From an uncultured Bacteroidota bacterium (GTDB lineage: Bacteria; Bacteroidota; Bacteroidia; UKL13-3), in contig CAIYNF010000079.1 in assembly GCA_903927505.1 (NCBI GenBank), forward strand, positions 1 through 39,750: a stretch of 39,750 nt of DNA, read 5' to 3'. Positions 3,653 through 27,400 of this stretch are shown one piece after another. Made by a program: the position numbers and the translations under genes. Position 1 is the stretch's first letter; each line of letters opens with the position of its first letter. The notes beneath the pieces were generated by a model that was not told where the DNA came from, searched no databases, and saw only the letters and a program-made list of their open reading frames with translations.

Positions 3653-4075
3653 CTAGGCCTTCACCATTTTCACATGCTCAATATCGGCTTCCCAAAAATT
3701 TTCTCCTTTTGGTTCGAACCCAAACTTGGCATACAAAGGCGCAGCAGTAAGTTGGGCATGTAGGTAAAGGGTTTGGTTCGAACCAACTAATTCTTCACCT
3801 AATAAATGCGTTAAGAGTGCGGCAGCAACTCCTTGCATGCGCGCTTCTTCTAAAACCGCAAATCTTTCTAATTTAATTCCTTTTTCTGTTTGGCGCCAAC
3901 GGGCTGTTCCAACCGGCTTTTCGTTTAAAAATGCCAAAAAATGGGTTGATTCTTCTTCGTATTCCCATTCTAGTTCGGGAGGGCAGTTTTGGCCTACTAC
4001 AAATACTTCGGTTCTAATGGCCCAAGCCTGCTCTAAATCAATTTGGTTTGAAATTTTTATTACGTCTATTTTCAT
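3653..4075 (-). CDS. GNAT family N-acetyltransferase (ElaA-like)
   Basis: Protein of 140 residues. The opening IRTEVFVVGQNCPPELEWE resembles ElaA-type GNAT proteins, the central beta strands include THFLAFLNEKPVGTARWR, and the acetyl-CoA pyrophosphate-binding loop is RMQGVAAALL. The C-terminal half LYLHAQLTAAPLYAKFGFEP is the usual GNAT strand-helix-strand ending. The substrate is unknown. The gene is unusual in DNA content: this 423-bp frame holds two exact copies of GGTTCGAACC (3711, 3775) and one TTGGCGCCAA (3890). It is convergent with the acyl-CoA synthetase and divergent from the aldolase gene. Confidence 0.88.
   Translation of the reverse strand: MKIDVIKISNQIDLEQAWAIRTEVFVVGQNCPPELEWEYEEESTHFLAFLNEKPVGTARWRQTEKGIKLERFAVLEEARMQGVAAALLTHLLGEELVGSNQTLYLHAQLTAAPLYAKFGFEPKGENFWEADIEHVKMVKA
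3711..3720. repeat. iterated palindrome GGTTCGAACC, copy 1
   Basis: Exact 10-bp palindrome inside the GNAT gene, encoding part of GFEP in the frame GG TTC GAA CC. Confidence 0.7.
3775..3784. repeat. iterated palindrome GGTTCGAACC, copy 2
   Basis: Exact copy inside the GNAT gene in the frame GGT TCG AAC C (Gly-Ser-Asn). The palindrome extends to 14 bp, TTGGTTCGAACCAA, at 3773-3786. Confidence 0.7.
3890..3899. repeat. second palindrome TTGGCGCCAA, copy 1
   Basis: Exact 10-bp palindrome in the GNAT gene, covering the Trp-Arg-Gln codons. Confidence 0.6.
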
Positions 4076-4133: not shown

Positions 4134-5186
4134 ATGACAAAAGTAGCCGAATTATTAGGCGATAGCGCAGAGTCGTTATTGAACCATGAGTGTAAAACAA
4201 TTTCTAAAAGCCAATTGCATTTACCCGGAGGCGATTTTCTAGATCGCGTTTTTGTGCAAGGCAACCGCAACCCACAAGTATTAAGAAGCTTGGGCGCCAT
4301 TTATAATTCTGGCCGATTGGCAGGTTCTGGCTATGTATCAATTCTTCCAGTAGATCAAGGTATAGAGCACAGTGCAGGTGCATCCTTTGCGCCGAACCCA
4401 GCTTTTTTTGATCCAGAAAATATTATTAAATTAGCTATTGAAGGCGGTTGTAATGCTGTAGCTTCAACATATGGTGTTTTGGCTGCTTGTTCAAGAAAGT
4501 ATGCACATAAAATACCTTTTATTGTAAAAATTAACCACAACGAATTTTTAAGCTACCCAAATAAATTCGACCAAATTATGTTTGGTTCGGTAGAAGAAGC
4601 TTGGAACTTAGGTGCTACAGCAGTAGGTGCAACCATCTATTTTGGATCAGACGAAAGTGGTCGCCAAATACAAGAAGTAGCTGCAGCTTTTGAACGTGCA
4701 CATGAATTAGGAATGGCTACTATTTTATGGTGCTATACCCGCAACAATGCCTTCAAAAAAGACGGTGTAGATTACCATACTTCTGCAGATTTAACTGGTC
4801 AAGCCAACCATTTGGGTGTAACTATCCAAGCAGATATTATCAAACAAAAATTACCTACCAACAATGGTGGTTATACTGCTTTAAATTTTGGTAAAACCCA
4901 TAACAAGGTTTATACAGAATTGTCATCAAGCCATCCAATTGATTTGGCGCGTTACCAAGTAGCCAATTGCTATATGGGACGCCAAGGTTTAATTAACTCA
5001 GGTGGAGAAAGCAAAGGTGCAACAGATTTAGCCGAAGCAGTAACAACAGCCGTAATTAACAAACGTGCAGGTGGCCAAGGATTAATTTCTGGTCGTAAAG
5101 CTTTCCAAAAACCAATGAATGAAGGTATTGCCTTATTGAATGCCATTCAGGATGTGTATTTGGATAATAGCGTAACAATCGCATAA
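4134..5186 (+). CDS. fbaB: class I fructose-bisphosphate aldolase, DhnA/FbaB type
   Basis: Protein of 350 residues, typical of the DhnA-type class I aldolases of bacteria and archaea, which are metal-independent. Recognisable segments are [11 protein letters not shown] (near residue 70), [11 protein letters not shown] (near 129), [11 protein letters not shown] (195-205) and [13 protein letters not shown] (228-240). K237 is the probable Schiff-base lysine by position in the family pattern. The phosphate-binding region is NSGGESKG followed by GLISGRKAF. It interconverts fructose-1,6-bisphosphate with glyceraldehyde-3-phosphate and DHAP in glycolysis and gluconeogenesis. The gene is a stand-alone unit, with a strong promoter upstream and a clear terminator 20 bp after the stop. 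Confidence 0.92.
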
Positions 5187-5205
5187 TTATTTAATAAGCA
5201 CAGGT

Positions 5206-5246
5206 AAAGCCAGAACTATCTTTTAAAGGTAGTTCTGGCTTTTTTA
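5206..5246 (+). terminator. Rho-independent terminator after the aldolase gene
   Basis: AAAGCCAGAACTA and TAGTTCTGGCTTT form a long stem (with an inner T-G wobble it extends further), closely followed by six T. It is one of the two clearest terminators in the window. Confidence 0.9.
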
Positions 5247-5251
5247 TTTAA

Positions 5252-5261
5252 CTGGCGCCAA
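5252..5261. repeat. palindrome variant CTGGCGCCAA
   Basis: One mismatch from TTGGCGCCAA, located between the aldolase terminator and the secreted-protein cluster. A perfect copy lies just after the far end of the same cluster at 12370. Confidence 0.45.
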
Positions 5262-5359
5262 TTATTGCCTTATTTTTCTAATTAAAATAAATATACCCCC
5301 AGTAATCATAATTATTTTTAGCTTACATAGAATTAATTATTTTTTGGTTCTAACCTAGT

Positions 5360-5367
5360 TATATTTG
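5360..5367 (+). promoter_or_regulatory. -7 element of the secreted-protein operon
   Basis: TATATTTG matches TAnnTTTG exactly, 6 bp before the ATG at 5374. It rules against the TTG at 5365 as start codon because that codon lies inside the element. The transcript may be nearly leaderless. No convincing -33 box at 19-bp spacing. Confidence 0.55.
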
Positions 5368-5373
5368 CTTAAG

Positions 5374-7878
5374 ATGTTAAGCGATACCCCAAAGAAAAAA
5401 CCAAGCCTACTGCAGCAAATTTCTCTATTGAATAGGGAGAGAACAGCTTTAGTAGGCAATGGTAAAATCATCTCAAATTGGGCATCAACAAAGGCTAAAA
5501 GCGTTTTGCTGCTCTCGTTTTTTCTGTTACAAATTTTGGGTTTAGAACAAAATGTACTTGCTCAAACTGGCAAGGGCATAAGTATGCAAATGGTTGTAAG
5601 GGATAACAATCAGAACTTGTTAATAGAAAAAAATGTTGCTTTAAGATTGAGCATTCATAAAGATGTGGCAAATGGTCCAATTATATTTCAAGAATTACAA
5701 ACCATTAAAAGCAATTTACAAGGATTAATAAAATTAGAAATTGGCTCGGGCGTATTTGGCTTTGGTGATTTAGACAGTATAAATTGGGGCAGTGCTATTT
5801 ATTACCTGCAAACAGAAGTAGATCCACTTGGAGGAAATAAATGGAGCATCAATTCAAGCGTTCCTATACATGCTGTTCCCTATGCCATGCATGCGGCGAA
5901 CGGTGTTCCTGCAGGTGCAAAAAACGGACAAGTTTTAAGTTTGTGTGATGGTGTGGCTACTTGGGAGTCATGTAAGGCAAGGATACCCCTTGTTCAAACC
6001 AATGTAGCCTCAGAGGTAACAGATAGAAGTGCAAGTATTGGTGGCAGCATTCTTGAATCGGGAGGTTCAAAGGTTATTGCGAGGGGTATTTGTTATGCCA
6101 AAACACCAAATCCTACCTTGTGGGACAAGCGCAGTGAAATAGCGTTGGCCAATACAAACTTTACAAGTAGTTTTACGAATTTAGATACCAATACACTTTA
6201 TTATGCAAGGGCATATGCCAGTAATTCTGTTGGCACAGGCTATGGACAGCAAATTACTTTTAAAACCTTGGCACCTAAAATTGATACACTTCTAAAAATA
6301 GGAATGTATTACCAAGGTGGCATAATTGCGTATTTATTAAAGGAAGGAGATTTGGGATATAATCCAAAAATCCAACAAGGATTTATTGTAGCAGATACAG
6401 ATTTTGTAAAAGGGTCTTTCAATACTTTTGCTTGGCGCAAGGAGAAGGATACCATAACGGGTGGCAATGCAACTGAAATAGGAAGAGGTTTATTTAATAC
6501 GGGTAAAATTATTCAAGTTCAAGAAGGAGATTCTAATAGCACTTACGCAGCATTAAATTGTTATGGTTTAAATAGAAATGGTTTTGAGGATTGGTATTTA
6601 CCAAGTAGAGATGAACTTAATCAAATTTATCAAAATAAAGACCTAATAGGTCATATGAGCGCTGCCAATTATTGGTCGTCTACCGAAGTAAATGAACACA
6701 GTGCTTTTATACAAAATTTTGGAACAGGCGTGCAGGATATTTGTTTTAAAGATGCCTTGTGCAGGGTAAGACCTATAAGAGCAATTAGGGTGTATCCAGA
6801 TTTTTCTTATATAGTAAATGCACAAGGCGAAAAAATTTACAACGACAGCAATGTTCAAATGGTTTATGTAAACCTTGGCATAATGGGCGATTTAGTGGCT
6901 GAATCTCATATTAAATCGGCTTTGGAATACACCAATATTTGCCAAAATATTAATACACCTCCTCAACAGGTAGAAGAGAGTTTGGTTCTAAAAGAAATTA
7001 TAGGAATGTTTTCTACCTGTTTTGAAATTGGCGTCTTGGTTTTTGCTCCAGAAGCCAAAGCTTTGCATATGGCTGCAAGGATTATTAGTGGTGTTTCAGA
7101 AATGATTTTTAAGGAGAAAAAAGAGAACCTGCCAGAAAATATTCAAGGTGAAATAAACAATGTTTGGGATGGTTTAAATACCACTTTTGATTTGGTGAAA
7201 TTTAGGTTAGACTCCTACAGAGACAGTCTTCCTAAATATTGGTTTACCCAATTTAGGTCTGTGTATTCTGGCGAGGTGGTTTCTTTTGGCGATTTATATA
7301 AAAACGGGTATTTACCTGCAAAGAACCAAACTGATTTTGATTCTGCGAAATATTATATAGCCAAGGTAGCCAAATACGAAATGACCAAAGAATTATTGCA
7401 TTTGCGCTGGAATATTCGGTCGTATGCAATTATAGGTGACCAAAATGCCAGTTATAATAAATGGCAAACTACTGTTAGAACACGCTGGAATGAAAATTCG
7501 CTTTGGTCTGATGACTATCCCGTTGATAAATACCAAAACATTTATTATTTCCAGGATAGAACGCTGAATGGTGCATTAGACAAGGCAGCTCAACATTCCT
7601 CTGAACCAAATGGGAAAGCCCTTTATTATTGGACCGAACCGTATACCGATCCTGAAATAAAAAATTGGCTGACAAATAATATTCAATATTCTGGCTTAAA
7701 GGTTTATCTCTGGGAATTGGCGCCAAGTATTAATTACCCTTCTGCTATAGCCCCTGAGTCACTGATAAATTGGTTGTTCAAAGACGATATGAAAGGCTTT
7801 TTAGTAAGACCTTCTGCGGTTACCACGCGTAAAGATGTTTTTAAAAATTGGGGTTTAAATGTTTATATGGGTTATTAG
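5374..7878 (+). CDS. secreted multidomain protein with DUF1566-like domain and unique C-terminal extension (paralog 1)
   Basis: Protein of 834 residues from ATG 5374. About 38 polar residues precede a hydrophobic export segment (SVLLLSFFLLQILGL) ending in NVLAQ. Next is the Bacteroidota N-terminal beta domain (GISMQMVVRDN to VPYAMHAANG, about 68-175), then a NGQVLSLCDGVATWE linker. An FN3-like domain follows (about 200-297, with ARGICYAKTPNPT and YYARAYASNSVGTGYG), then a DUF1566/Lcl-type domain (about 303-475, with GFEDWYLPSRDEL and NYWSSTE). Residues 476-834 have no counterpart in the three downstream paralogs and match nothing I recognise. They are helix-rich, with a hydrophobic stretch near 540-580 (IIGMFSTCFEIGVLVF). 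No type IX sorting signal is visible at the C-terminus. First gene of a tightly spaced five-gene run. A surface-exposed or structural role is inference. Confidence 0.82.
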   Translation: MLSDTPKKKPSLLQQISLLNRERTALVGNGKIISNWASTKAKSVLLLSFFLLQILGLEQNVLAQTGKGISMQMVVRDNNQNLLIEKNVALRLSIHKDVANGPIIFQELQTIKSNLQGLIKLEIGSGVFGFGDLDSINWGSAIYYLQTEVDPLGGNKWSINSSVPIHAVPYAMHAANGVPAGAKNGQVLSLCDGVATWESCKARIPLVQTNVASEVTDRSASIGGSILESGGSKVIARGICYAKTPNPTLWDKRSEIALANTNFTSSFTNLDTNTLYYARAYASNSVGTGYGQQITFKTLAPKIDTLLKIGMYYQGGIIAYLLKEGDLGYNPKIQQGFIVADTDFVKGSFNTFAWRKEKDTITGGNATEIGRGLFNTGKIIQVQEGDSNSTYAALNCYGLNRNGFEDWYLPSRDELNQIYQNKDLIGHMSAANYWSSTEVNEHSAFIQNFGTGVQDICFKDALCRVRPIRAIRVYPDFSYIVNAQGEKIYNDSNVQMVYVNLGIMGDLVAESHIKSALEYTNICQNINTPPQQVEESLVLKEIIGMFSTCFEIGVLVFAPEAKALHMAARIISGVSEMIFKEKKENLPENIQGEINNVWDGLNTTFDLVKFRLDSYRDSLPKYWFTQFRSVYSGEVVSFGDLYKNGYLPAKNQTDFDSAKYYIAKVAKYEMTKELLHLRWNIRSYAIIGDQNASYNKWQTTVRTRWNENSLWSDDYPVDKYQNIYYFQDRTLNGALDKAAQHSSEPNGKALYYWTEPYTDPEIKNWLTNNIQYSGLKVYLWELAPSINYPSAIAPESLINWLFKDDMKGFLVRPSAVTTRKDVFKNWGLNVYMGY
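7717..7726. repeat. second palindrome TTGGCGCCAA, copy 2
   Basis: Exact copy near the end of paralog 1, in the frame TTG GCG CCA (Leu-Ala-Pro), a different frame from the copy in the GNAT gene. Confidence 0.55.
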
Positions 7879-7883
7879 AAATA

Positions 7884-9179
7884 ATGAAAATTATGCAACA
7901 AAAATTTGTTTTCTATTTCATGCTTTGTGTAATGGTTTTTGGTTCGAACCGAAGCCAAGCGCAAGTGCCTGATAAGTTTAGCTACCAAGCAATTTTGCGC
8001 AACCAAACAAATACACTTGTTAGGAATAAACCTATAGGTGCGCGTGCTGTAATTTATAGAGACAACAGCTCAAAAGAAATTTTATTTTCTGAAATGCATC
8101 AGGCGCAAACAGATTCTAATGCCTTGTTAGATTTAGTAATTGGCAATGGACTAAAATTGTCTGGAAGCATTGAAAATATTGATTGGGCAAATGGTCCTTT
8201 TGGCATTAGAATTTTAATTGATTTCAATGGAGGAACAAATTATACCCTTATTCAAGAAACGCCATTTTTAAATGTGCCTGTAGCAAATTATACAAAAAAC
8301 ATGGTACCCAAAGGAGGAAAGCATGGCCAGGTATTGCATTTCTGCAATGGCCAAGCAAGCTGGGAGCCTTGTCCTGTTATTTTGCCTAATGTGCTTACCA
8401 ATGCTGTTATTAGTATTTCAATGGACAAGGGCCTTGCCAATTTAAGTGGTACGGTAGAAAATGATGGTGGTTCATCTATTACAGCGCGCGGTTTTTGTTG
8501 GGGCACATCTGCTAATCCAAGCACCAGTGGTGCTAAAATAATTTGTTCTAGCGGAGCAGGAAGTTTTGCGGGTGAAATAAATGGCTTAAAGGAAAAAACC
8601 ATTTATTATATACGTGCATATGCCAGCAATAGTGCAGGAACTTCTTATGGCAATGAAATAAGCTTGCTTACGCCAGATGCGCCAGCATTAGCTGTAGGAA
8701 AGAGTTACCAAGGCGGCATTATTGCTTATATGCTGGTGCCTGGAGATTCTGGTTACAATGCCAATGTGCCGCATGGTTTAATTTTGGCTACCCAAGATAT
8801 GCCTGGTACACCCAAATGGTGTTATAATCAGGCTTCTGCTACAGCTATTGGAAATACCTTTACAAGAGTTGGTTCCGGTTATTACAATACCGCTGCCATT
8901 TCACTTATTCAAGGCAATAATTTTGATGGTGCTTATGCCGCAAAAGTTTGTTACGATTTAATTTTAAATGGCTACGACGATTGGTTTTTACCCAGTAAAG
9001 ATGAATGGAGAAGGATTGCTTTAAACCGCAACCTTATCAATGGTTTGGGAACAGATTGGTATTGGTCGTCTAGCGAATCTGAAACCACCAAGGCTTGGAT
9101 GGTAGAAATGGGAACAGGCGATACCAATACTTACCAAAAATGGTATCCGCAAAAAGTTAGGGCAGCTCGTAATTTTTAA
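7884..9179 (+). CDS. secreted DUF1566-like domain protein (paralog 2)
   Basis: Protein of 431 residues from ATG 7884, 5 bp after the previous stop; an upstream in-frame TTG at 7848 would overlap paralog 1 and is less likely. The signal peptide ends near GSNRSQAQ. The domains follow the order of paralog 1. The N-terminal beta domain runs from FSYQAILRNQ to FLNVPVANYT, the linker is GGKHGQVLHFCNGQASWEPC, and the FN3-like domain contains ARGFCWGTSANPS and YIRAYASNSAGTSYGNE. The C-terminal DUF1566/Lcl-like domain contains GYDDWFLPSKDEW, YWYWSSSE and KVRAARNF at the very end. It ends exactly where that domain ends and has no sorting tail. Function unknown; the conserved W and R motifs belong to a C-type-lectin-like fold family, so ligand binding is possible. 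Confidence 0.85.
   Translation: MKIMQQKFVFYFMLCVMVFGSNRSQAQVPDKFSYQAILRNQTNTLVRNKPIGARAVIYRDNSSKEILFSEMHQAQTDSNALLDLVIGNGLKLSGSIENIDWANGPFGIRILIDFNGGTNYTLIQETPFLNVPVANYTKNMVPKGGKHGQVLHFCNGQASWEPCPVILPNVLTNAVISISMDKGLANLSGTVENDGGSSITARGFCWGTSANPSTSGAKIICSSGAGSFAGEINGLKEKTIYYIRAYASNSAGTSYGNEISLLTPDAPALAVGKSYQGGIIAYMLVPGDSGYNANVPHGLILATQDMPGTPKWCYNQASATAIGNTFTRVGSGYYNTAAISLIQGNNFDGAYAAKVCYDLILNGYDDWFLPSKDEWRRIALNRNLINGLGTDWYWSSSESETTKAWMVEMGTGDTNTYQKWYPQKVRAARNF
7941..7950. repeat. iterated palindrome GGTTCGAACC, copy 3
   Basis: Exact copy in the signal-peptide region of paralog 2, in the frame GGT TCG AAC C. Confidence 0.7.
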
Positions 9180-9183
9180 TAGG

Positions 9184-10509
9184 ATGAGGCATAAAAATTT
9201 ATACCAAAAGCAAAGTCAACTCCTGCTAAAAATTATTTTATTCTTAGTGGTGTTTACTTGCTTTTCTAATTTGCAGCTTAGCGCGCAAAAAAATGGCTTC
9301 AGCATGCAATTGCTTATACGAAATAGTAAGCAAAATTTATTGCTTGATAAAATGGTGGGCGTGCAGTTTAGTATTTTAAAAGGTGCTGCAAATGGTCCTG
9401 TTGTATACCGTGAGGCGCAATTGGTTCGAACCAACTCACAAGGCATGGCCAATTTAGTAATTGGAAATGGAACGCTTAGTTTAGGTAAATTTGACAGCAT
9501 TGACTGGGGGCGTGAAACTTATTTTATTAAAACAGAAATTGACCCAGCAGGGGCAGCTAATTATACCATTAGTTCTAGCAATAGTATTTACCAAGTACCT
9601 TATGCTATGTATGCTGGAAACGGCCTTCCAGCAGGCGCAAAGCAAGGCAATGTATTGAGTTTTTGTAATGGGATGGCTTCTTGGGAACCGTGTACGCCCA
9701 AATTGCCTAGCCTGCTTACTTTGCAGTTAACAAATATTACTGCCTATGGGGTAAGCAGTGGTGGAAGCCTTATGGAAACAGGCGGAGCAGAAATTATTGC
9801 CCGTGGTATTTGTTATGGTAAAAACACCAATCCTACCTTGATCGACAGCGTGCAGTTAGCACCCAATGGTGGTAATTTATTTTACAACGCACTTAGCAAT
9901 TTAGATACCAATACTACTTATTATGTGCGTGCCTTTGCCACCAATAGTGTAGGTACTGCTTATGGAAATCAGTTTACTTTTAAAACATTAAGTGTTGTTT
10001 CAGATACCAGTTTAAAAATTGGCATGAGCTATCAAGGTGGCGTTATTGCTTACCTATTTAAAGAGGGAGATCCAGGCTACAATAGCCAGATAAGGCATGG
10101 CATAATTGCTCAAACAAGTGATTTACATGTTGCGGCAAAAACAAATTTTAAGTGGAATATTTTTCTCGATTCTTTTACTTATGCCAATCAAATTAGTATA
10201 GGTGGCGCTTTGGCAAATACGCTTCAAATTATTGCCAAACAGCCTTTAGATTCTGCAGCTGATTACGCTGCTAGACTTTGTAATTTAGACAGTACAGGTG
10301 GCTTTAAAGATTGGTTTTTGCCAACAAGAAATGAATTGCAATTAATGTTTGTTGGTAAAAATAAAATAAACGGATTTTCAACTGAAGCCTATTGGAGCAG
10401 CAGTGAGGCGGGTTATTATACTGCCTACGGACTAGATTTTAGAACAGGTAATTGTGATGTGTATTTCAAGAAGTCGAATTTAAAAATTAGAGCAATCAGG
10501 TATTTTTAA
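9184..10509 (+). CDS. secreted DUF1566-like domain protein (paralog 3)
   Basis: Protein of 441 residues starting 4 bp after paralog 2. The signal peptide has a hydrophobic core (IILFLVVFTCF) and a cleavage-like LSAQ. The N-terminal beta domain (GFSMQLLIRNSK to YQVPYAMYAGNG) is closest to that of paralog 1, and the linker GNVLSFCNGMASWEPC follows. The FN3-like domain has ARGICYGKNTNPT and YYVRAFATNSVGTAYGN. The C-terminal DUF1566/Lcl-like domain has GFKDWFLPTRNEL, AYWSSSE and KIRAIRYF. The shared ICYGK/KTPNPT and YQGG(V/I)IAYL(F/L)KEGD signatures suggest that paralogs 1 and 3 are sisters by duplication. No sorting tail. Function unknown. Confidence 0.85.
   Translation: MRHKNLYQKQSQLLLKIILFLVVFTCFSNLQLSAQKNGFSMQLLIRNSKQNLLLDKMVGVQFSILKGAANGPVVYREAQLVRTNSQGMANLVIGNGTLSLGKFDSIDWGRETYFIKTEIDPAGAANYTISSSNSIYQVPYAMYAGNGLPAGAKQGNVLSFCNGMASWEPCTPKLPSLLTLQLTNITAYGVSSGGSLMETGGAEIIARGICYGKNTNPTLIDSVQLAPNGGNLFYNALSNLDTNTTYYVRAFATNSVGTAYGNQFTFKTLSVVSDTSLKIGMSYQGGVIAYLFKEGDPGYNSQIRHGIIAQTSDLHVAAKTNFKWNIFLDSFTYANQISIGGALANTLQIIAKQPLDSAADYAARLCNLDSTGGFKDWFLPTRNELQLMFVGKNKINGFSTEAYWSSSEAGYYTAYGLDFRTGNCDVYFKKSNLKIRAIRYF
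9423..9432. repeat. iterated palindrome GGTTCGAACC, copy 4
   Basis: Exact copy in paralog 3, in the frame G GTT CGA ACC (Val-Arg-Thr), the third possible frame. The palindrome extends to 14 bp, TTGGTTCGAACCAA, at 9421-9434, identical to copy 2. Confidence 0.7.
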
Positions 10510-10527
10510 CTCTTTATAAAAGTAAAA

Positions 10528-11835
10528 ATGAACAATACTATAAAAAGCATTTGTGTAGGGCATAATTGTAAAAAAGCAGGAGCGTTTTTTCTGCTATTTT
10601 TCTTGCTACAGGTAGCAAACTTGTTTGCCCAATCTGGCAATAATTTTGGCTACCAAAGTATGGTGCGCAGGGCAGATGGAACGGCCCTTGAAAAAAACAT
10701 TACAGTAAAAATTAGTTTGTTATTTGGTTCAGAAAATGGAACTGTGCTGTATGCAGAAAAGCACCAAACAGTTACCAATATCAATGGTTCCTATATGATT
10801 GAAGTGGGCTCGGGAATTAAATTGGCTGGGTCTATAGAAGCAATCAATTGGCAATCGTCTAGTATTTTTTTAAGTGCAGAAATTGATACCATTGGCAATG
10901 GAACTTATTCTTTGCTTGAAAGGCACCAAATACTAAGTGTTCCCTACGCAAGCTTTACGCCAAACGGCCTTCCCAATACACCGGGTAAGCATGGAGATGT
11001 TTTAACCGTATGTAATGGAGTTCCACAATGGGGCCCCTGTGCCATTGGTACAGCTGTTCTTGGCACTATTGGCGTTGCTGATGTTGGAAGCACTTTTGCA
11101 AAAGCCGATGGCGAAGTAAGCAGCGATGGCGATGGCTTTGTAATTGAAAGAGGTTTTTGCTGGGACACAGTTCCTGCTCCTACCACTTCAAAATTTAAAT
11201 CGAGTAATGGTGGTGGAGAGGGTAAATTTAATTCTAATATATCTAGCTTGTTGCCAGAAACACGTTATTATTTGCGGGCTTATGCAATAAATGAAACGGG
11301 TACTTCTTATAGCAATGAAATTGTTTTTACTACTAAGGGAGCACCACAAAGAATTGCAGGTGAAAATTACCTTGGTGGTGTAATTGTTTATATGCTAAAA
11401 GCAGGCGACCCTGGATTTGAAGCCAATACACCTCATGGAATTATTGCAGCCAGCAGCGATCAAAGTAGTTCATCAGCATGGGCAGCGGCAAGTTTTAATA
11501 CCTATGTTCAAAACAATGAACTGGGAAAAGGTCGTCAAAATGCGGATCAATTGTTTGCCTTGTTAGGTGATAAAGCCACCGCTGTGGTATTGTGCAGAAA
11601 CTTACGCATCAATGGTTATGATGATTGGTTTTTACCCAATGCAACAGAATTTGAAAAGGTATTTCAATTTTCAAATGGAACGGGCCCAGGCAAGTTTTTA
11701 AATGATGGACCTTATTGGACCTCATGCGAAGACCAAGGCTCTGCGGGAGCTTTGGCTAAAGCTTTTGTTGGAGGACAAGCACAATCATATAATAAATTCC
11801 TTCCTTTTAGCGTGAGGGCAATCCGTTATTTTTAA
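10528..11835 (+). CDS. secreted DUF1566-like domain protein (paralog 4)
   Basis: Protein of 435 residues, 18 bp after paralog 3. The signal peptide (core FFLLFFLLQVANLF) ends at AQ. The N-terminal beta domain runs from FGYQSMVRRADG to LSVPYASFTPNG, and the linker is GKHGDVLTVCNGVPQWGPC. The FN3-like domain has ERGFCWDTVPAPT and YYLRAYAINETGTSYSNE. The DUF1566/Lcl-like domain has GYDDWFLPNATEF, PYWTSCE and SVRAIRYF at the C-terminus. It resembles paralog 2 more than 1 or 3 (ARGFCW/ERGFCW, GKHG linker). It is the most diverged copy: the WSSSE motif has become WTSCE. No sorting tail. Function unknown. Confidence 0.85.
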   Translation: MNNTIKSICVGHNCKKAGAFFLLFFLLQVANLFAQSGNNFGYQSMVRRADGTALEKNITVKISLLFGSENGTVLYAEKHQTVTNINGSYMIEVGSGIKLAGSIEAINWQSSSIFLSAEIDTIGNGTYSLLERHQILSVPYASFTPNGLPNTPGKHGDVLTVCNGVPQWGPCAIGTAVLGTIGVADVGSTFAKADGEVSSDGDGFVIERGFCWDTVPAPTTSKFKSSNGGGEGKFNSNISSLLPETRYYLRAYAINETGTSYSNEIVFTTKGAPQRIAGENYLGGVIVYMLKAGDPGFEANTPHGIIAASSDQSSSSAWAAASFNTYVQNNELGKGRQNADQLFALLGDKATAVVLCRNLRINGYDDWFLPNATEFEKVFQFSNGTGPGKFLNDGPYWTSCEDQGSAGALAKAFVGGQAQSYNKFLPFSVRAIRYF

Positions 11836-11854
11836 TTTTAATAAAACGAAAATT

Positions 11855-12343
11855 ATGAAATCATATACAAGTTTAAAATTGGTAGTATTCTTTTTATTAA
11901 GCATGCCGTTTGCCTTTTTGCAAGCACAACATGCAGTAGTTGCTAGCGGTGGAGATGGAATGGGTGCAGGTGGTAGCTTTACTTTTAGCGTGGGTCAAGT
12001 TTTTTATACTACAGCTACACATGCTACAGGTTCTGTTAGTGCAGGTGTTCAACAAGCCTACGAAGTTTACCTATTAAAAACCAACGAAATTCCAATGCCT
12101 GAGGTTTGGGTGAATGTTTTTCCAAACCCTACCAGTAATTTTATTAGTATTGAATCCATAGAAAATATGGCGGGCAAGCTTAGCTTTACCCTAATAGACA
12201 TGCAAGGCAAGGAGCTGTTAAGCGCCGAACCAATTGGAAAAAGTATTCAAATACAAATGGAGGCTTATGCCGCAGGCACCTATATGCTTAACCTAAGGCA
12301 TCAAAATGGCGCTATAAAAAGCTACAAAATTGTAAAAAGATAG
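11855..12343 (+). CDS. small secreted protein with type IX (type A) C-terminal sorting domain
   Basis: Protein of 162 residues. A signal peptide (VVFFLLSMPFAFLQAQ) is followed by a short glycine-rich segment GGDGMGAGGSFTFSVGQVFY and GSVSAGVQQAYEV, a pattern common in Bacteroidota secreted proteins. Residues from about 85 onward form a type A sorting domain: VNVFPNPTSNFISIE, a central SFTLIDMQGKEL and the terminal GTYMLNLRHQNGAIKSYKIVKR with its basic end. Such domains direct export through the SprA-type channel and attachment or release at the cell surface. It lies 19 bp after paralog 4 and closes the five-gene run, the only member with a sorting tail. That makes it a candidate partner or carrier of the paralogs, which is inference only. 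Confidence 0.88.
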   Translation: MKSYTSLKLVVFFLLSMPFAFLQAQHAVVASGGDGMGAGGSFTFSVGQVFYTTATHATGSVSAGVQQAYEVYLLKTNEIPMPEVWVNVFPNPTSNFISIESIENMAGKLSFTLIDMQGKELLSAEPIGKSIQIQMEAYAAGTYMLNLRHQNGAIKSYKIVKR

Positions 12344-12369
12344 GCTATTAATCTTTAAAATTACTGCTT

Positions 12370-12379
12370 TTGGCGCCAA
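12370..12379. repeat. second palindrome TTGGCGCCAA, copy 3
   Basis: Exact 10-bp palindrome in the intergenic region after the secreted cluster. Confidence 0.55.
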
Positions 12380-12431
12380 CTAGCCCTATGGTAGTTTCCT
12401 TATAATCTGCACTTTAAGTTATTTTTCTTGG

Positions 12432-12439
12432 TATATTTG
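12432..12439 (+). promoter_or_regulatory. -7 element for accD
   Basis: TATATTTG matches TAnnTTTG exactly, 39 bp upstream of the accD ATG. A -33 box is not clear. Confidence 0.55.
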
Positions 12440-12478
12440 TCGGCATGCTTTTATTTCGAACCCCATTATTGAATTGAA

Positions 12479-21414: not shown

Positions 21415-24400
21415 TTGTACCGTAGCTCAAAACTAACATACTTGCGTTTTTTACTCCCGCTTACCTTTGTGCTTACACTGGTATGGGATGCAACACCCCG
21501 CTCGGAAATTAATAGAGCGCGGGACTTCTCGCTTGCACCCCCTGATAGCAGTGAGAAAACAAAACTTAAATATCCTATTCGCGATAAAAAAGCCTACGAA
21601 ACCCAAGGCAAAAAACATCCTTTGGACCTTTCCGAGCCTGCCATTATAAAAGAGAAATATACGCTCGACCAAGAGCAGCTGAAATACAATAAGACCTCTA
21701 AAATTGGTAGCCTGGATTATAAATTACCTGCCTCTACTTCTGTTTCCGATCAATTAAAAGCAAGCGGTGCGCAAAGCAATAAAGATTATTTCCGCCAACG
21801 CGCCCAAGCACAAAACTTCACCAAGGGCAATGGCCTTTTGCCCCAGTTAAACATTGGCAACAAAGTAGTAGATAAAATTTTTGGTAATGGCATTATTGAT
21901 ATTCGTCCAAGAGGAACGGCCGAGGTAATTTTTGCCGGCAATTTTAATACCGTGCGCAATCCCGCATTTAGTTTGAGGCAGCAGAAAACGGGTCAGTTTG
22001 ATTTCAAGCAAAAAATTCAATTAAACGTTACCGGACAAGTAGGAGATAAGCTTAAGGTAAATATGAATTATGATACCGAAGCCACCTTTGAGTTTGAGAA
22101 CCAAATGAAATTGGATTTTGGTGGTAAAGACGATGATATTATCAAGAAAATTGAATTGGGAAATGTGAGCTTGCCGCTCAACTCAAGCCTTATTCAAGGT
22201 AGTTCGAGTTTGTTTGGCGTAAAAACCACCATGCAGTTTGGCAAGTTAACGGTAACTGGGGTGGTAAGTCAGCAAAGAGGAAAAACACAAGAAACTGAAT
22301 TGGCCGGCGGAACCACCACTACCAAATTTGATATTCAATGTGACGCTTACGACATGAACCGCCATTATTTCTTGGCGCATTATTTTAGAGACAATTATGA
22401 GCTTTGGTTAAATAAGTTACCATTTATTGGTTCGCCCGTTGTTATTACACGTGTAGAAGCCTGGGTAACCAATAGAAGTGGTTCTTTTGAGCAATCGCGT
22501 GATGTAATTGGATTTGCAGATATGGGTGAAGGAAAGCACCGCGATAATAAATTTTGGACCGTAAATGGTGGTCCTGATTTAGGAAGTGGCGTTAATAATT
22601 TGTACGACCCAAGCAATTACCAAACCTATTTGAATGGTTACGGAAACCCTGCATTGGCCGCTAAGTTCAGGGCCAGCTACGAAATTGAAAACCAATTGAG
22701 CGCAGATTTAGCCACCACAGGCTTGCGTCCAATATCGCAATACCAAGCCATCAATTTTGCACGCCAATTAGGTCCTAACGAATTTAATTTTAATGCACGC
22801 TTGGGTTATATTTCACTTAACCAGGCACTCAACAACGATGATGTATTGTGCGTTGCTTACGAAGGAACCATTAATGGTATTCCTTTTAAAGTGGGGGATT
22901 TTAGCATGGACATTCCGCGCAATGTAGACAAGCCAGAAGTATTGTTTTTAAAGATGTTGAAAGGCCCAAGTTTAAGGCCAGACCTGCCTATTTGGGACTT
23001 GATGATGAAGAATGTGTATTCATTGGGTTCGTTTCAAGTGCAACCCAAAGACTTTAAATTAAATTTGGTTTATGCAGACGACCCGAGTGGTAGCGACTTG
23101 AGTTATTTGCCAGTTAAGAACGAGCCCTATTTAAGTAATTTACCTTTGCTCAATGTGTTCAATGTAGACAATATGAATACCATGCAAGAGCCTGTATCGG
23201 ATGGTTTGTTTGACTTTGTAGAAGGGGTTACGGTAAACTCACAAACGGGCAGGGTATTTTTACCAACAGTAGAACCTTTTGGAAAATATTTACAAGCAAA
23301 ATTTGTGAACGATCCAAACTTGGCATCCTACTATTGCTTCTTTGCTTTATATGATTCTACGCGTTTTTCTGCGGTGCAACAACCCCAATACAACAAGTTC
23401 TTTTTACGAGGTTCATACCAAGGTTCGAGTACCAATGAAATTTCATTGGGATCAACAAATGTGCCAAGAGGTTCTGTGCGCGTAACCTCAAATGGGGCGC
23501 CACTTACAGAGAATTCAGATTATATAGTAGATTACAATTTAGGCAGGGTGAAAATAGTAAATACAGCCCTGTTAAATTCGGGTGCTGTAATTAAAGTTTC
23601 CTCAGAAAGTAACAACCTGTTTCAAATTCAACAAAAGAGTTTAATGGGTGCTCGCTTCGATTATAAATACAGTCCTAATTTAGTTTTGGGATCAACCTTT
23701 ATGTATTTAAATGAACGCCCACTTACCCCAAAAGTAAATATTGGTGAGGAGCCCATTTCAAATATGATTGTGGGCGTAGATGGAACCTATACCACGCAAT
23801 CGCGTTTCTTAACCAAATTGGTAGATAAACTACCCTTTATTGAAACCAAAGAACTTTCTAATATTACCATTTCTGGTGAATATGCGCGTTTAATTCCGGG
23901 TATACAAAGTTCTTTGATTCAAAATGGAACGGCCTATTTAGACGATTTTGAGGGCGCAGAAACACCTTTTGATTTGCGCATGGGAAATACTTGGGCATTG
24001 GCAAGTACACCGCAAGGACAACCAGATAATTTTCCAGAAGGAAATTCATTGAACAAGTTAGAATATGGATTTAAACGTGCCAATCTTTCTTGGTATACCA
24101 TTGCCACTACTTTTTACAGAAATGATGCCTTTACACCTTTGCATTTAAAGAATGATCCTGCCTCTTTATCTATTCATGCTACGCGTGAAGTTTTGCAACA
24201 AGATGTGTTTAAGAACAAACAAATTCAACAAGGATTGCCAACTACTTTGCCAACTTTTGATTTGTCGTTTCATCCCAGTGAAAAAGGTCCTTATAATTTT
24301 AACGTAAATGATTTAAACGAAGATGGCACGCTTCGCAACCCGCGCAGCAATTGGGGTGGCGTAATGCGTAAGATAGATCAAAATGATTTTGAGCAAGCCA

Positions 24401-27400
24401 ATATAGATTATATTGAAATGTGGGTGATGGATCCATTTGCAGATAAGCCTGCCAGTGTTGACCGTGGTTATTTGTATATCAATTTAGGAAATATATCGGA
24501 AGATTTATTGCGCGATAACCGCCGTTCTGCAGAGAATGGCATGCCTAAAAATAATACGCCAGAACAAATTTCACAAATAGATACCACGGCATGGGGAAGG
24601 GTACCAAGAGCACCCGTAATTAATTATGCTTTTGATGCAGATCCCAATGTGCGCAAGAACCAAGATATTGGAATGGACGGACTTTCAGACGAAGGAGAGC
24701 GTACTTATTTTAATGATGTTTATGTGCAAAAAGTATTGGCAAAATATGGCCCAACTTCTACTGCTTATATTGCCGCCAATGATGATCCATCAAATGATAA
24801 TTACCATTATTATTTAGGAACTGATTACGATAACAAAAAGGTTGGTTTATTAGACAGGTATAAAAAATATAACCGCCACCAAGGCAACTCACCAACGGTA
24901 GATCAAAGTCCGGAAGCATACCCAACTGCGGCCACCAACGTGCCCGATAACGAAGATTTGAACCGCGATTATACCGTAAATGGGGTAGAAGAATATTTCC
25001 AATATAAAATTGAAGTAGCGCGTGATGCCTTTATTATTGGTAGAAATTTTGTTACAGATACCTTAACCACCAATGCCAAATTTATTAATGGCGATTATGC
25101 GGCAGAAAAGTGGTACCAATTAAAAGTTCCTGTGCGCGAATTTGAGCGCAAGGTGGGTGAGATCAACGATTTTAAATCTATCCGTTTTATCCGCATGTAC
25201 ATGCGTGGTTTTGCCGAACCTACCATTATGCGTTTTGCAACATTGCAATTGGTTCGAGCCGACTGGAGAAAATATTTGAGCAATTTAGAAGCGGGTGGAG
25301 AGCACAAGCCAATTGACCCAACCGACAATACACAATTTGTAGTTTCAACCGTAAATATTGAAAAGAACGGAAGGCGCGAACCTATTAAATACATTATGCC
25401 TCCGGGCATTCAGCGTGAGATAGATTTTAGCTCACCTACCAGCATTCAACAGAACGAACAATCTATTAGTTTACTTACTTGCAATTTAAAAGATGGCGAT
25501 GCCCGTGGGGTGTTTAAAAACTCAAATGTTGATTTACGCCAATATGGAAAGTTGCGTTTGTTTGTGCATGCAGAAGGAGAGAATTTAAAGAACGATGAGC
25601 TTACCGCATTTTTCCGTTTTGGTACCGATTTAACCAATAACTATTACGAGTTTGAAATTCCTTTGCAGGTGACGCCAAGCCAAGCCAGCGATGCCAGTGT
25701 AATTTGGCCAAGTGCCAATGAAATGACCATTTTGTTGGAGGAAATGATTAATACCAAAATTGCCCGAACCAATGCAGGATTTGCTTTTACAGCACCCTTT
25801 AGCAGGCAAATTGGAAATGCTACTTATACGGTGGTGGGTATGCCAGATTTTAGTCAGCTCAAGGTAATGATGATGGGGGTAAAAAATCCTAAACGCAGAC
25901 CTGGAAGTTCTACCGATGACGGTTTACCAAAATGTGCGGAGGTTTGGTTCAATGAGTTGCGCATGACAGATTTTAACACACGAGGTGGAGATGCTGCTAC
26001 GGGTAGGGTTTTGGCCAAGTTAGCAGATTTTGGAAGTGTGCAATTGAGTGGTTCTTATAAGAGTGTAGGTTGGGGTGGTATAGATAAAAAATTGGTTGAA
26101 CGTAACATGGCCGATAATTACATTTACGATTTACAAACCAATTTTGAATTGGGAAAATTCTTCCCAAAAACTTCCGGAATTTCATTGCCATTTTTCTTCT
26201 CTTATGGCAATACTTTGGTAAGGCCTTTTTATAATCCCTTGAATCCCGATACCAAATTACAAAAGGAAATTGCAGAAACCACCAATCCAGAACGCAGTGA
26301 TCAAATTAGCCGAGCGGCTGATGATTTAACCACACGAAAGAGCTTTAATTTTACCAATGTAAGAAAGAACAGGGTAGGAGCTAAAACGGCCTATCCATGG
26401 GATATTGAGAACTTTTCGTTTACCTATTCTTACAATGAAATTTTTAGAAGAAACCAAACCTTAGAATATAACCTCACGCAAAATTATAAGGGCATGGTTT
26501 CCTATACTTATAATTTTGTGAACAAGCCTTTTGAGCCATTTAAATCTATTAAAAATAAGAACCTAGAAATTATCAAGGACTTTAATTTTAATTACATGCC
26601 AGCCAGTTGGGGTATGCGTGCAGAGGCAGATAGAAGGTATGGTGAATTGCTAAACAGAAACAATGATAGCAGGGAAACAGTTTTACCTGTTTTATATGAT
26701 AAGATGTTTACCATGCGCAGGTATTATGAGTTACGGTACGATATTACCAAAAACGTAAAGCTCGATTACAATGCAAGCAATGATTCTAGGGTAGATGAAC
26801 CTTTTGGGAAAATAAGTGCTGCCACCCCAGAGAAACAAGACTCTATTCGCCAGAATTTTTGGAATGGCGGACGTACCACTAAGTTTGACCAAACCACCAG
26901 GCTCAATGTAAATATACCGGTAAACAAATTGCCGTATATGCAATGGGTAAGTCAGTTGAGTTATACATATAGTGCCAACTTTCAATGGTTGCAGGCACCT
27001 CCGGCCGCAGACAGTTTGGGTAATACCATTCAGAACTCCAAGCAAGAACAATGGAATTTGAATTTAATTTTTGTGCAGTTCTACAACAAGTTTGGTATTT
27101 ATAGAAAAGTAACCAATCCTAAACAAGCAGCGGCATCTAAACAAAAACCTAAAAACCTAGAAGTACAAACGGAAGGTGGTAAAGATGCCAAGGCAAAAGC
27201 GGCAAAAGAACAGAATACGCGCGATCATTACCCTATTTGGGTGGTTGCACCCATTAAACTTTTAACCATGGTTAAAAATGCTGGCGGAACTTATTCTACT
27301 ACCAATGGTACTGCTTTGCCAGGCTTCTATCCGAGGCCTCAGTTTTTTGGTCAGAATTTTAACAATGGCGGACCAGGTTTTGATTTTATTTTTGGCATGC

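What the first reader, a model, noticed from the sequence alone, without database searches (positions are those of the whole stretch)
6799..7878. Unrecognised C-terminal region of about 359 residues in paralog 1
Seen: after the DUF1566-like domain ends at IRAIRVY, paralog 1 continues with a helix-rich region absent from its three paralogs. It has a hydrophobic hairpin-like stretch near residues 540-580, then charged helices and aromatic-rich segments (YYFQDRT, YYWTEPY, WLTNNIQYSG). It matches no family I know. Inference: an added effector-like or membrane-interacting module on a surface scaffold; a pore-forming role is only a guess.
Basis: partly seen in the sequence, partly recalled or inferred. 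Interest (0 to 1): 0.5.

Follow-up and report, generated by a model that had tools for sequence, protein, structure and literature searches.

The report
Orphan tip on a fibre-like protein
One of four neighbouring fibre-like proteins in a Bacteroidota genome carries an extra 359-residue end piece of unknown fold; it looks like an added tip on a common fibre scaffold whose tips vary, and nothing here shows that it is a toxin.

Summary
Paralog 1 (5365-7878, + strand) ends in 359 residues (6799-7875) that its three tandem paralogs lack. They match nothing above chance in Pfam, NCBIfam, PHROGs, PADLOC or PDB sequences. The region is real coding sequence: it is intact in a second genome (96% identity) with dN/dS about 0.18. 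In the searches made, these two genomes gave the only credible hits.

The scaffold could be identified. Its N-terminal ~137-residue domain is distantly related to that of Bdellovibrio mosaic adhesive trimer (MAT) fibres. The domain is widespread in this family (35 of 62 genomes) in front of very different modules: S74 chaperone, collagen, kelch, FISUMP, cytochrome-like, Lcl_C. Of 14 N-domain plus Lcl_C ORFs examined, 12 stop at Lcl_C; only paralog 1 and its ortholog continue.

Best reading: a lineage-restricted tip added behind the Lcl_C head of a MAT-like mosaic fibre, most likely for surface binding. The tail's fold and activity are undetermined. AlphaFold2 failed (pLDDT 36), the hydrophobic stretch is too polar for a membrane helix by itself, and there is no room for an immunity gene before paralog 2. 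A pore-forming or effector role is neither supported nor excluded.

The parts
5365..7878 (+). paralog 1 ORF (837 aa; ATG alternative start at 5374)
5365..5562 (+). long N-region and apparent Sec signal peptide, likely cleavage A|Q before residue 67 (the same A|Q is visible in all four paralogs); judged by eye, no predictor run
   Evidence: sequences; the Bacteroidetes Q-rule as stated in the abstract of PMC5837995, seen in the listing
5563..5973 (+). N-terminal ~137-residue domain, distant relative of Bdello_MAT_N (NF053851)
5992..6297 (+). Fn3-like domain (found through the N-terminal part of NF049889; named Fn3 by eye and from PF00041 in the relative L117)
6541..6780 (+). Lcl_C / DUF1566 domain (PF07603, 34.3 bits in the protein scan, cut-off 34.9)
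   Evidence: 38.7 bits, over the cut-off,
6799..7875 (+). orphan C-terminal tail, 359 residues, the finding
6982..7104 (+). hydrophobic/amphipathic stretch of the tail (tail residues 62-102), hairpin unverified
   Evidence: low-confidence helices
7396..7875 (+). aromatic-rich last part of the tail, possibly alternating strand and helix (unverified)
7308..7503 (+). patch of high divergence from the ortholog (25 substitutions; dS 0.31, dN 0.10 over 7306-7503)
7597..7764 (+). second divergent patch (14 substitutions; dS 0.33, dN 0.02)
7848..9179 (+). paralog 2, same scaffold, no tail (likely mature start at 7962)
9184..10509 (+). paralog 3, same scaffold, no tail
10528..11835 (+). paralog 4, same scaffold, no tail
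11855..12343 (+). 162-aa protein with a T9SS type A sorting domain, last gene of the cluster

Best explanation
The tail is a lineage-restricted extra tip module on a MAT-like mosaic surface fibre. Shown: paralog 1 has an N-terminal domain distantly related to that of Bdellovibrio MAT fibres, an Fn3-like domain and an Lcl_C (DUF1566) domain; in relatives this N-domain is followed by very different modules; and where N-domain and Lcl_C occur together, Lcl_C is otherwise the end of the protein. Inferred: export by a signal peptide, the N-domain at the cell surface, trimerisation of the Lcl_C heads as in Legionella Lcl, and three tails projecting beyond them. Inferred and weaker: the tail acts by contact, binding a glycan, polymer or cell-surface partner and adding a second specificity to that of the DUF1566 head. 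The aromatic-rich C-terminal half would be the likeliest contact surface and the N-terminal, perhaps helical, half the support. The tail appears to have exchanged DNA with diverged alleles, as expected of a surface module, although other genes nearby show similar patches.
For: Tail only in paralog 1 and its ortholog. 12 of 14 complete N-domain plus Lcl_C ORFs (4 from this cluster in the two genomes, 8 from other genomes) have zero residues after Lcl_C; the other 2 are this protein and its ortholog. The N-domain profile hits 35 of 62 family genomes, own included. Ten of the 42 N-domain ORFs listed were scanned: 10 of 10 hit Bdello_MAT_N at 24.7-37.7 bits, and 9 of 10 carry an S74, collagen, kelch, FISUMP, cytochrome-like or Lcl_C match. 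Lcl C-terminal domains form trimers and bind glycosaminoglycans (PMC11162425, abstract and passages); MAT fibres have a conserved ~130-aa N-domain and varied tips (PMC10769870, abstract and passages). Purifying selection on the tail, dN/dS 0.18. No match to the four paralogs or the tail lies downstream of the aldolase gene in 16 of 16 congeners read, three of them cut short by a contig end.
Against: The MAT_N matches are all below the curated 60-bit cut-off, and paralog 1 itself scores only 19.8 bits. No type IX sorting domain is found on paralogs 1-4, so surface location is inferred. The tail has no fold, no distant homolog and no biochemical clue; binding is a default guess from its context. 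Divergent patches are not special to the tail: 15 substitutions in 3801-3900 and 12 in 4701-4800.
Confidence: 0.5

Rival explanations
1. The tail is an effector: a helical domain with an amphipathic hairpin that inserts into a target membrane, plus an aromatic-rich receptor-binding part, displayed or released by the fibre.
For: Hydrophobic stretch among charged segments (low-confidence helices); display-type scaffold.
Against: No family match. The segment is too polar for a membrane helix by itself. No room for a protecting gene between paralog 1 and paralog 2. No usable structural model.
Confidence: 0.12
2. The tail is an enzyme domain (for example a glycan-acting or phosphodiesterase alpha/beta domain) tethered to the fibre.
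For: Apparent strand-helix alternation in the last ~110 residues (by eye and in low-confidence models); an end motif that resembles GDPD-type TIM barrels, by recall only.
Against: No GDPD or other enzyme family in Pfam scans of fragments up to E 10, apart from chance-level HMD. The PDB sequence hits of the last 119 residues (two beta-xylanases, E 0.4) align 45 residues at chance level.
Confidence: 0.2
3. The tail is a structural or secretion extension: it docks the fibre to a partner in the cluster or to outer-membrane machinery, with no external target.
For: Co-located paralogs and a T9SS-sorted small protein; paralogs 1-4 lack a T9SS sorting domain of their own (paralog 2 by Pfam only).
Against: The three paralogs, and the 8 N-domain plus Lcl_C ORFs from other genomes, have no such tail.
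Confidence: 0.15

Closest known systems
Bdellovibrio mosaic adhesive trimer (MAT) fibres (NCBIfam NF053851; PMC10769870)
   Same: Signal peptide, then a ~130-residue conserved N-domain, then diverse C-terminal tips, S74 chaperones among them; distant N-domain sequence match in 10 of 10 relatives scanned and in paralogs 1, 3 and 4.
   Different: Scores are below the family cut-off, so not a member by that test; Bacteroidota rather than Bdellovibrio; Fn3-like and DUF1566 domains here; whether any MAT tip resembles the orphan tail was not tested beyond the family libraries.
Legionella collagen-like adhesin Lcl, C-terminal domain (PF07603 / DUF1566, NF046116; PMC11162425)
   Same: Shares the DUF1566 domain (34.3 bits).
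   Different: In Lcl the DUF1566 domain is C-terminal and follows collagen repeats; here it follows an Fn3-like domain and is itself followed by the 359-residue tail.
DUF7872 (PF25278), recalled as a mainly fungal secreted family
   Same: The recalled order of motifs (hydrophobic hairpin, helices, a YYW-like strand) looked similar; recall only.
   Different: No HMM match: the tail and its fragments do not hit it in Pfam scans up to E 5-10, the own genome has none at E up to 10, and nothing was over the cut-off in 395 phylum genomes. The control genomes gave no positive. Not filed there.

Membership tests
MAT fibre (NF053851) | N-domain match above the curated 60 bits | tested here: not met
   paralogs 1, 3, 4: 19.8, 35.2, 33.3 bits (paralog 2 not given to that scan); ten relatives 24.7-37.7 bits
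MAT fibre (NF053851) | conserved N-domain after the signal peptide with variable downstream modules | tested here: met
   the signal peptide was judged by eye
MAT fibre (NF053851) | trimeric intertwined beta-prism fibre | not testable with these tools
   no oligomer modelling available
Lcl_C / DUF1566 domain | PF07603 match over its cut-off | tested here: inconclusive
   paralog 1: 34.3 bits against 34.9, E 3.2e-8; 38.7 bits, over the cut-off, in the genome search
Lcl adhesin | collagen-like repeats before DUF1566 (NF046116 cut-off 500) | tested here: not met
   44.4 bits, only positions 363-430 of the model
alpha pore-forming toxin | match to a known family | tested here: not met
   no family match
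alpha pore-forming toxin | helical bundle with an insertable hydrophobic hairpin | tested here: inconclusive
   hydrophobic stretch present but too polar for a membrane helix by itself; structure not obtained
polymorphic toxin with immunity gene | immunity ORF directly downstream | tested here: not met
   the ORF of paralog 2 overlaps the end of paralog 1
DUF7872 (PF25278) | profile match | tested here: not met
   Pfam scans of the tail and fragments and own genome; of genomes, only Bacteroidota could be searched, and the 14 control genomes gave no positive
T9SS cargo | C-terminal sorting domain | tested here: not met
   none on paralogs 1-4 in Pfam, nor on 1, 3 and 4 in NCBIfam; present on the 162-aa neighbour
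DGR target | variation limited to adenine positions of a template | tested here: not met
   differences from the ortholog are of all kinds and many are silent; the single RVT_1 hit of the genome lies on another contig

The most novel reading that the evidence does not exclude
The tail is a new fold: a helical, possibly membrane-active module with an aromatic-rich recognition part, carried beyond the trimeric lectin-like head of a Bacteroidota MAT-like fibre. That would make this a tip-delivered effector, in a fibre family that swaps tips between lineages and uses a base related to the one Bdellovibrio uses against prey.
Probability: 0.1. Interest if true: 0.65.

Novelty: new variant of a known kind. 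Interest (0 to 1): 0.35.

Why it matters
The tail alone is one of many orphan domains. The context is more useful. A domain related to the Bdellovibrio predatory-fibre base occurs in 35 of 62 genomes searched in this Bacteroidota family, followed by varied modules (chaperone, collagen, kelch, FISUMP, cytochrome-like, DUF1566, orphan). If those are real surface fibres, these Bacteroidota have a mosaic adhesin repertoire like the MAT one, and orphan tips such as this one are where new binding functions could be found.

Tried and rejected
GyrI-like relation: the weak hit in congener G002 (17.4 bits, E 0.0026 per genome; 17.0 bits, E 5e-5 against a small set of ORFs) lies in a 341-aa ORF that I read as an SRPBCC/GyrI-like protein (by eye and recall). 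With the two-row profile it is no longer listed at E <= 0.005, and Pfam finds no such domain in the tail. Rejected as chance, as are the G023, G044 and G035 hits at E 0.03-0.07 (two of them contain stops).

DUF7872: a lead recalled from memory, tested in the own genome and in 395 phylum genomes. Seven sub-cut-off hits appeared there. For five of the seven loci a long frame across the hit region was printed: by eye a RuvB-like ATPase, a TonB-dependent receptor, a transporter, a sensor kinase and an aminotransferase, so chance; the other two (L063, L065) were not read. I could not search other phyla.

GDPD-like end (recall), HMD and its NCBIfam relative, PVC baseplate protein, LolA, beta-xylanase, a phage-tail DUF and an unknown PHROG: all at chance-level scores.

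Diversity-generating retroelement: DUF1566 proteins are, as I recall, known DGR targets (PMC6642488 appears in the listing, not read), which made the clustered differences worth checking. They are not adenine-limited. The only RVT_1 hit in the genome I read by eye as a retron-like RT next to a GIY-YIG-like ORF, not a DGR.

Foreign composition: none seen; GC, GC3 and codon use of the tail are like its neighbours.

Structure: two AlphaFold2 jobs (whole tail; residues 201-359), both with mean pLDDT 36. No fold search was run on them, because matches to such models mean little.

Full report
WHAT IS THERE. The window is one contig (G000:C79) of a 2.82-Mb, 209-contig genome. Between a gene that I read by eye as a class I fructose-bisphosphate aldolase (4134-5186) and accD (12479 onwards; carboxyl transferase and ACC zinc ribbon) lie five same-strand genes: four paralogs (5365-7878, 7848-9179, 9184-10509, 10528-11835) and a 162-aa protein with a T9SS type A sorting domain. 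Paralog 1 continues for 359 residues (6799-7875) after the point where the other three stop.

IS THE TAIL REAL. Yes. The same frame is open in G011. The 26,079-base contig there has the same length and tail match as CANFHJ010000026.1, titled 'MAG: Bacteroidetes bacterium isolate Jr-11may16-3'. Identity over the tail is 96%. Nei-Gojobori estimates by script give dN/dS 0.18 for the tail (26 silent, 18 replacement changes), against 0.29 for the paralog-1 scaffold on few changes (6 and 6). The tail's differences cluster: 25 substitutions in the 200 bases from 7308, where 1000 uniform simulations with the same total (209 over 11,072 bases) averaged a maximum of 10.2 and never exceeded 15. Silent sites in two patches differ at dS about 0.3, against 0.00-0.09 in the other parts of the tail, so these patches probably came from a diverged allele by recombination. 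Against reading too much into this: 15 substitutions in 3801-3900 and 12 in 4701-4800, in other genes, are similar patches.

HOW WIDESPREAD. Beyond the own genome, one genome (G011) has a credible match. Whole-genome searches, own genome included in each count: 3 of 98 relatives at E <= 0.01 (own, G011 and one chance hit); 6 of 64 family genomes at E <= 0.1 (own, G011 and four chance hits); 1 of 395 class genomes (own); 1 of 395 phylum genomes with the two-row profile (own); 2 of 64 order genomes with the profile (own, G011). The order set is the same 64 genomes as the family set, and the other sets overlap. Class and phylum were sampled, not covered. The scan of the 84,980-species contig collection, which sees only relatives that keep one of six exact peptides, found 23 stretches, of which 1 was a relative, the G011 contig. 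Viral contigs: 31 stretches, none a relative. Phages: 1 record, at E 6, 35% identity over 54 residues. Plasmids: none at E up to 10.

WHAT THE TAIL IS NOT. No match in Pfam, NCBIfam, PHROGs, PADLOC or PDB sequences beyond chance, with the whole tail or with fragments. The best were PF03201 HMD at E 0.034, a related NCBIfam model at E 0.085, a PHROG of unknown function at E 0.12, and PDB hits at E 0.24 or worse. AlphaFold2 on the whole tail and on residues 201-359, each with two near-identical rows, gave mean pLDDT 36, so no structural statement rests on it. The hydrophobic stretch peaks at Kyte-Doolittle 1.61 and contains K and E; its summed residue free energies are about +6 kcal/mol, which argues against a membrane helix by itself. 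The tail is rich in Y (7.2%) and W (3.1%).

THE SCAFFOLD. All four paralogs show A|Q at the likely signal-peptide cleavage (by eye). That fits the Q-rule of Bacteroidetes SPI substrates (PMC5837995, abstract as listed only). Then follow a ~137-residue N-domain, an Fn3-like domain and Lcl_C. A profile of the four N-domains hits 35 of 62 family genomes and 10 of 14 genera at E <= 1e-8. From fetched loci I listed 42 N-domain ORFs, this cluster included, and scanned ten + strand ones. All ten match Bdello_MAT_N at 24.7-37.7 bits, below its 60-bit cut-off. Their further Pfam matches are S74 chaperone (2), collagen (3, one of them with a kelch propeller), Fib_succ_major/FISUMP (2, one just under its Pfam cut-off), multihaem-cytochrome-like (1, weak: best 26.0 bits against a 24.1 cut-off, no single stretch passing), Lcl_C (1, below the cut-off) and none (1). 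Two of the ten (L113, L094) were cut by the end of the fetched stretch, so their true C-ends were not seen. The MAT paper describes a conserved ~130-aa N-domain after the signal peptide, probably next to the predator surface, with varied tips; 13 of 21 members end in S74 (PMC10769870, passages). The Lcl C-terminal domain is a trimer that binds glycosaminoglycans (PMC11162425, abstract and passages). So the scaffold looks as if it works like a MAT fibre, but by the curated cut-off it is not a member of that family. The profile of the N-domain finds no solved structure (best E 0.42).

THE TAIL'S POSITION IS UNUSUAL. Among 54 distinct ORFs with a stop and an Lcl_C-end match, from the 121 loci held, 35 have at most 15 residues after it. 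Six have 16-60, which I read as the alignment ending early, because five of them still end in an R-x-F-like or R-Y-F terminus. Thirteen have more than 60: eleven belong to a different architecture (double Lcl_C, with sorting-like ends by eye, two of them with what I read as an FGE-sulfatase-like domain), and the remaining two are paralog 1 and its ortholog. Restricted to ORFs that also have the N-domain: 12 of 14 have zero residues after Lcl_C (4 from this cluster in the two genomes, 8 from other genomes, two of these nearly alike), and 2 (this pair) have 364. The loci were chosen by Lcl_C or N-domain hits, and ORFs cut at a locus end were dropped before the count, so this is a sample and not a census.

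WHERE THE CLUSTER SITS. The aldolase is in 18 of 19 genus genomes. I read the downstream side in the 16 other than G000 and G011, listing ORFs of at least 180 aa or with a match. accD follows with at most about 390 bases between in 5 (G003, G009, G002, G018, G015), follows after other genes in 5 (G013, G012, G006, G014, G004), and is not in the fetched stretch in 6 (G007, G001, G008 cut by the contig end; G017, G010, G005 with other genes). None of the 16 has a match to the four paralogs or the tail at E 1e-4; proteins in G013 and G010 match the T9SS-sorted 162-aa protein at E 6e-8 and 4e-7, in their last part. So the five-gene cluster sits in a spot whose content varies in this genus, most simply as a lineage-specific insertion.

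MECHANISM. Shown: module order, modularity of the scaffold, restriction of the tail to two genomes of one genus in these searches, purifying selection. Inferred from established families: display at the surface and trimerisation of the Lcl_C head. Inferred without direct support: that the tail is an extra tip that binds a surface partner (confidence 0.5 for the tip-and-binding reading as a whole). Enzyme (0.2), secretion or docking extension (0.15) and membrane-active effector (0.12) remain open. Against a producer-harming toxin: there is no room for an immunity gene between paralog 1 and paralog 2.

NOVELTY. A new variant of a known kind: MAT-like or DUF1566 display proteins are known kinds, while the tail after the DUF1566 head is an orphan. 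The paper library holds three papers with 'mosaic adhesive trimer' and Bdellovibrio, and the main MAT paper has no word beginning 'Bacteroid' in its main text. No paper holds 'DUF7872'. A search for four terms on orphan domains and pore formation in Bacteroidota found none holding all four, and of 277 papers with three of four terms around DUF1566 only 20 were listed. I make no wider claim of absence from print.

Noticed in passing
G-family loci, e.g. L091:1420-3105, L094:1441-3353, L104:1346-3220, L113:1405-3332: A MAT_N-like N-domain is widespread in this Bacteroidota family (35 of 62 genomes) in front of S74, collagen, kelch, FISUMP or cytochrome-like modules: a possible mosaic fibre repertoire outside Bdellovibrio.
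   Followed up: partly
L091:1420-3105 (similar C-ends in L097 and L099): The N-domain is followed by a weakly multihaem-cytochrome-like part (Cytochrom_C552 26.0 bits), which would be odd on an adhesive fibre.
   Followed up: no
window 5187-12478 and L068-L083: The interval between the aldolase gene and accD varies in the genus; different genes, or none of 180 aa or more, sit there in different species.
   Followed up: partly
window 3653-4075 and 4134-5186, against L004: Sharp divergence patches between two otherwise near-identical stretches (15 substitutions in 3801-3900, 12 in 4701-4800) suggest short-tract recombination.
   Followed up: partly
L008:1210-2274 (-), G000:C42: The only RVT_1 hit in the genome, read by eye as a retron-like reverse transcriptase, beside a GIY-YIG-like ORF.
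   Followed up: no
window 21415-28587: A 2390-aa protein with SprA_N (T9SS translocon) is encoded in the same contig, so the host probably has a type IX system.
   Followed up: no
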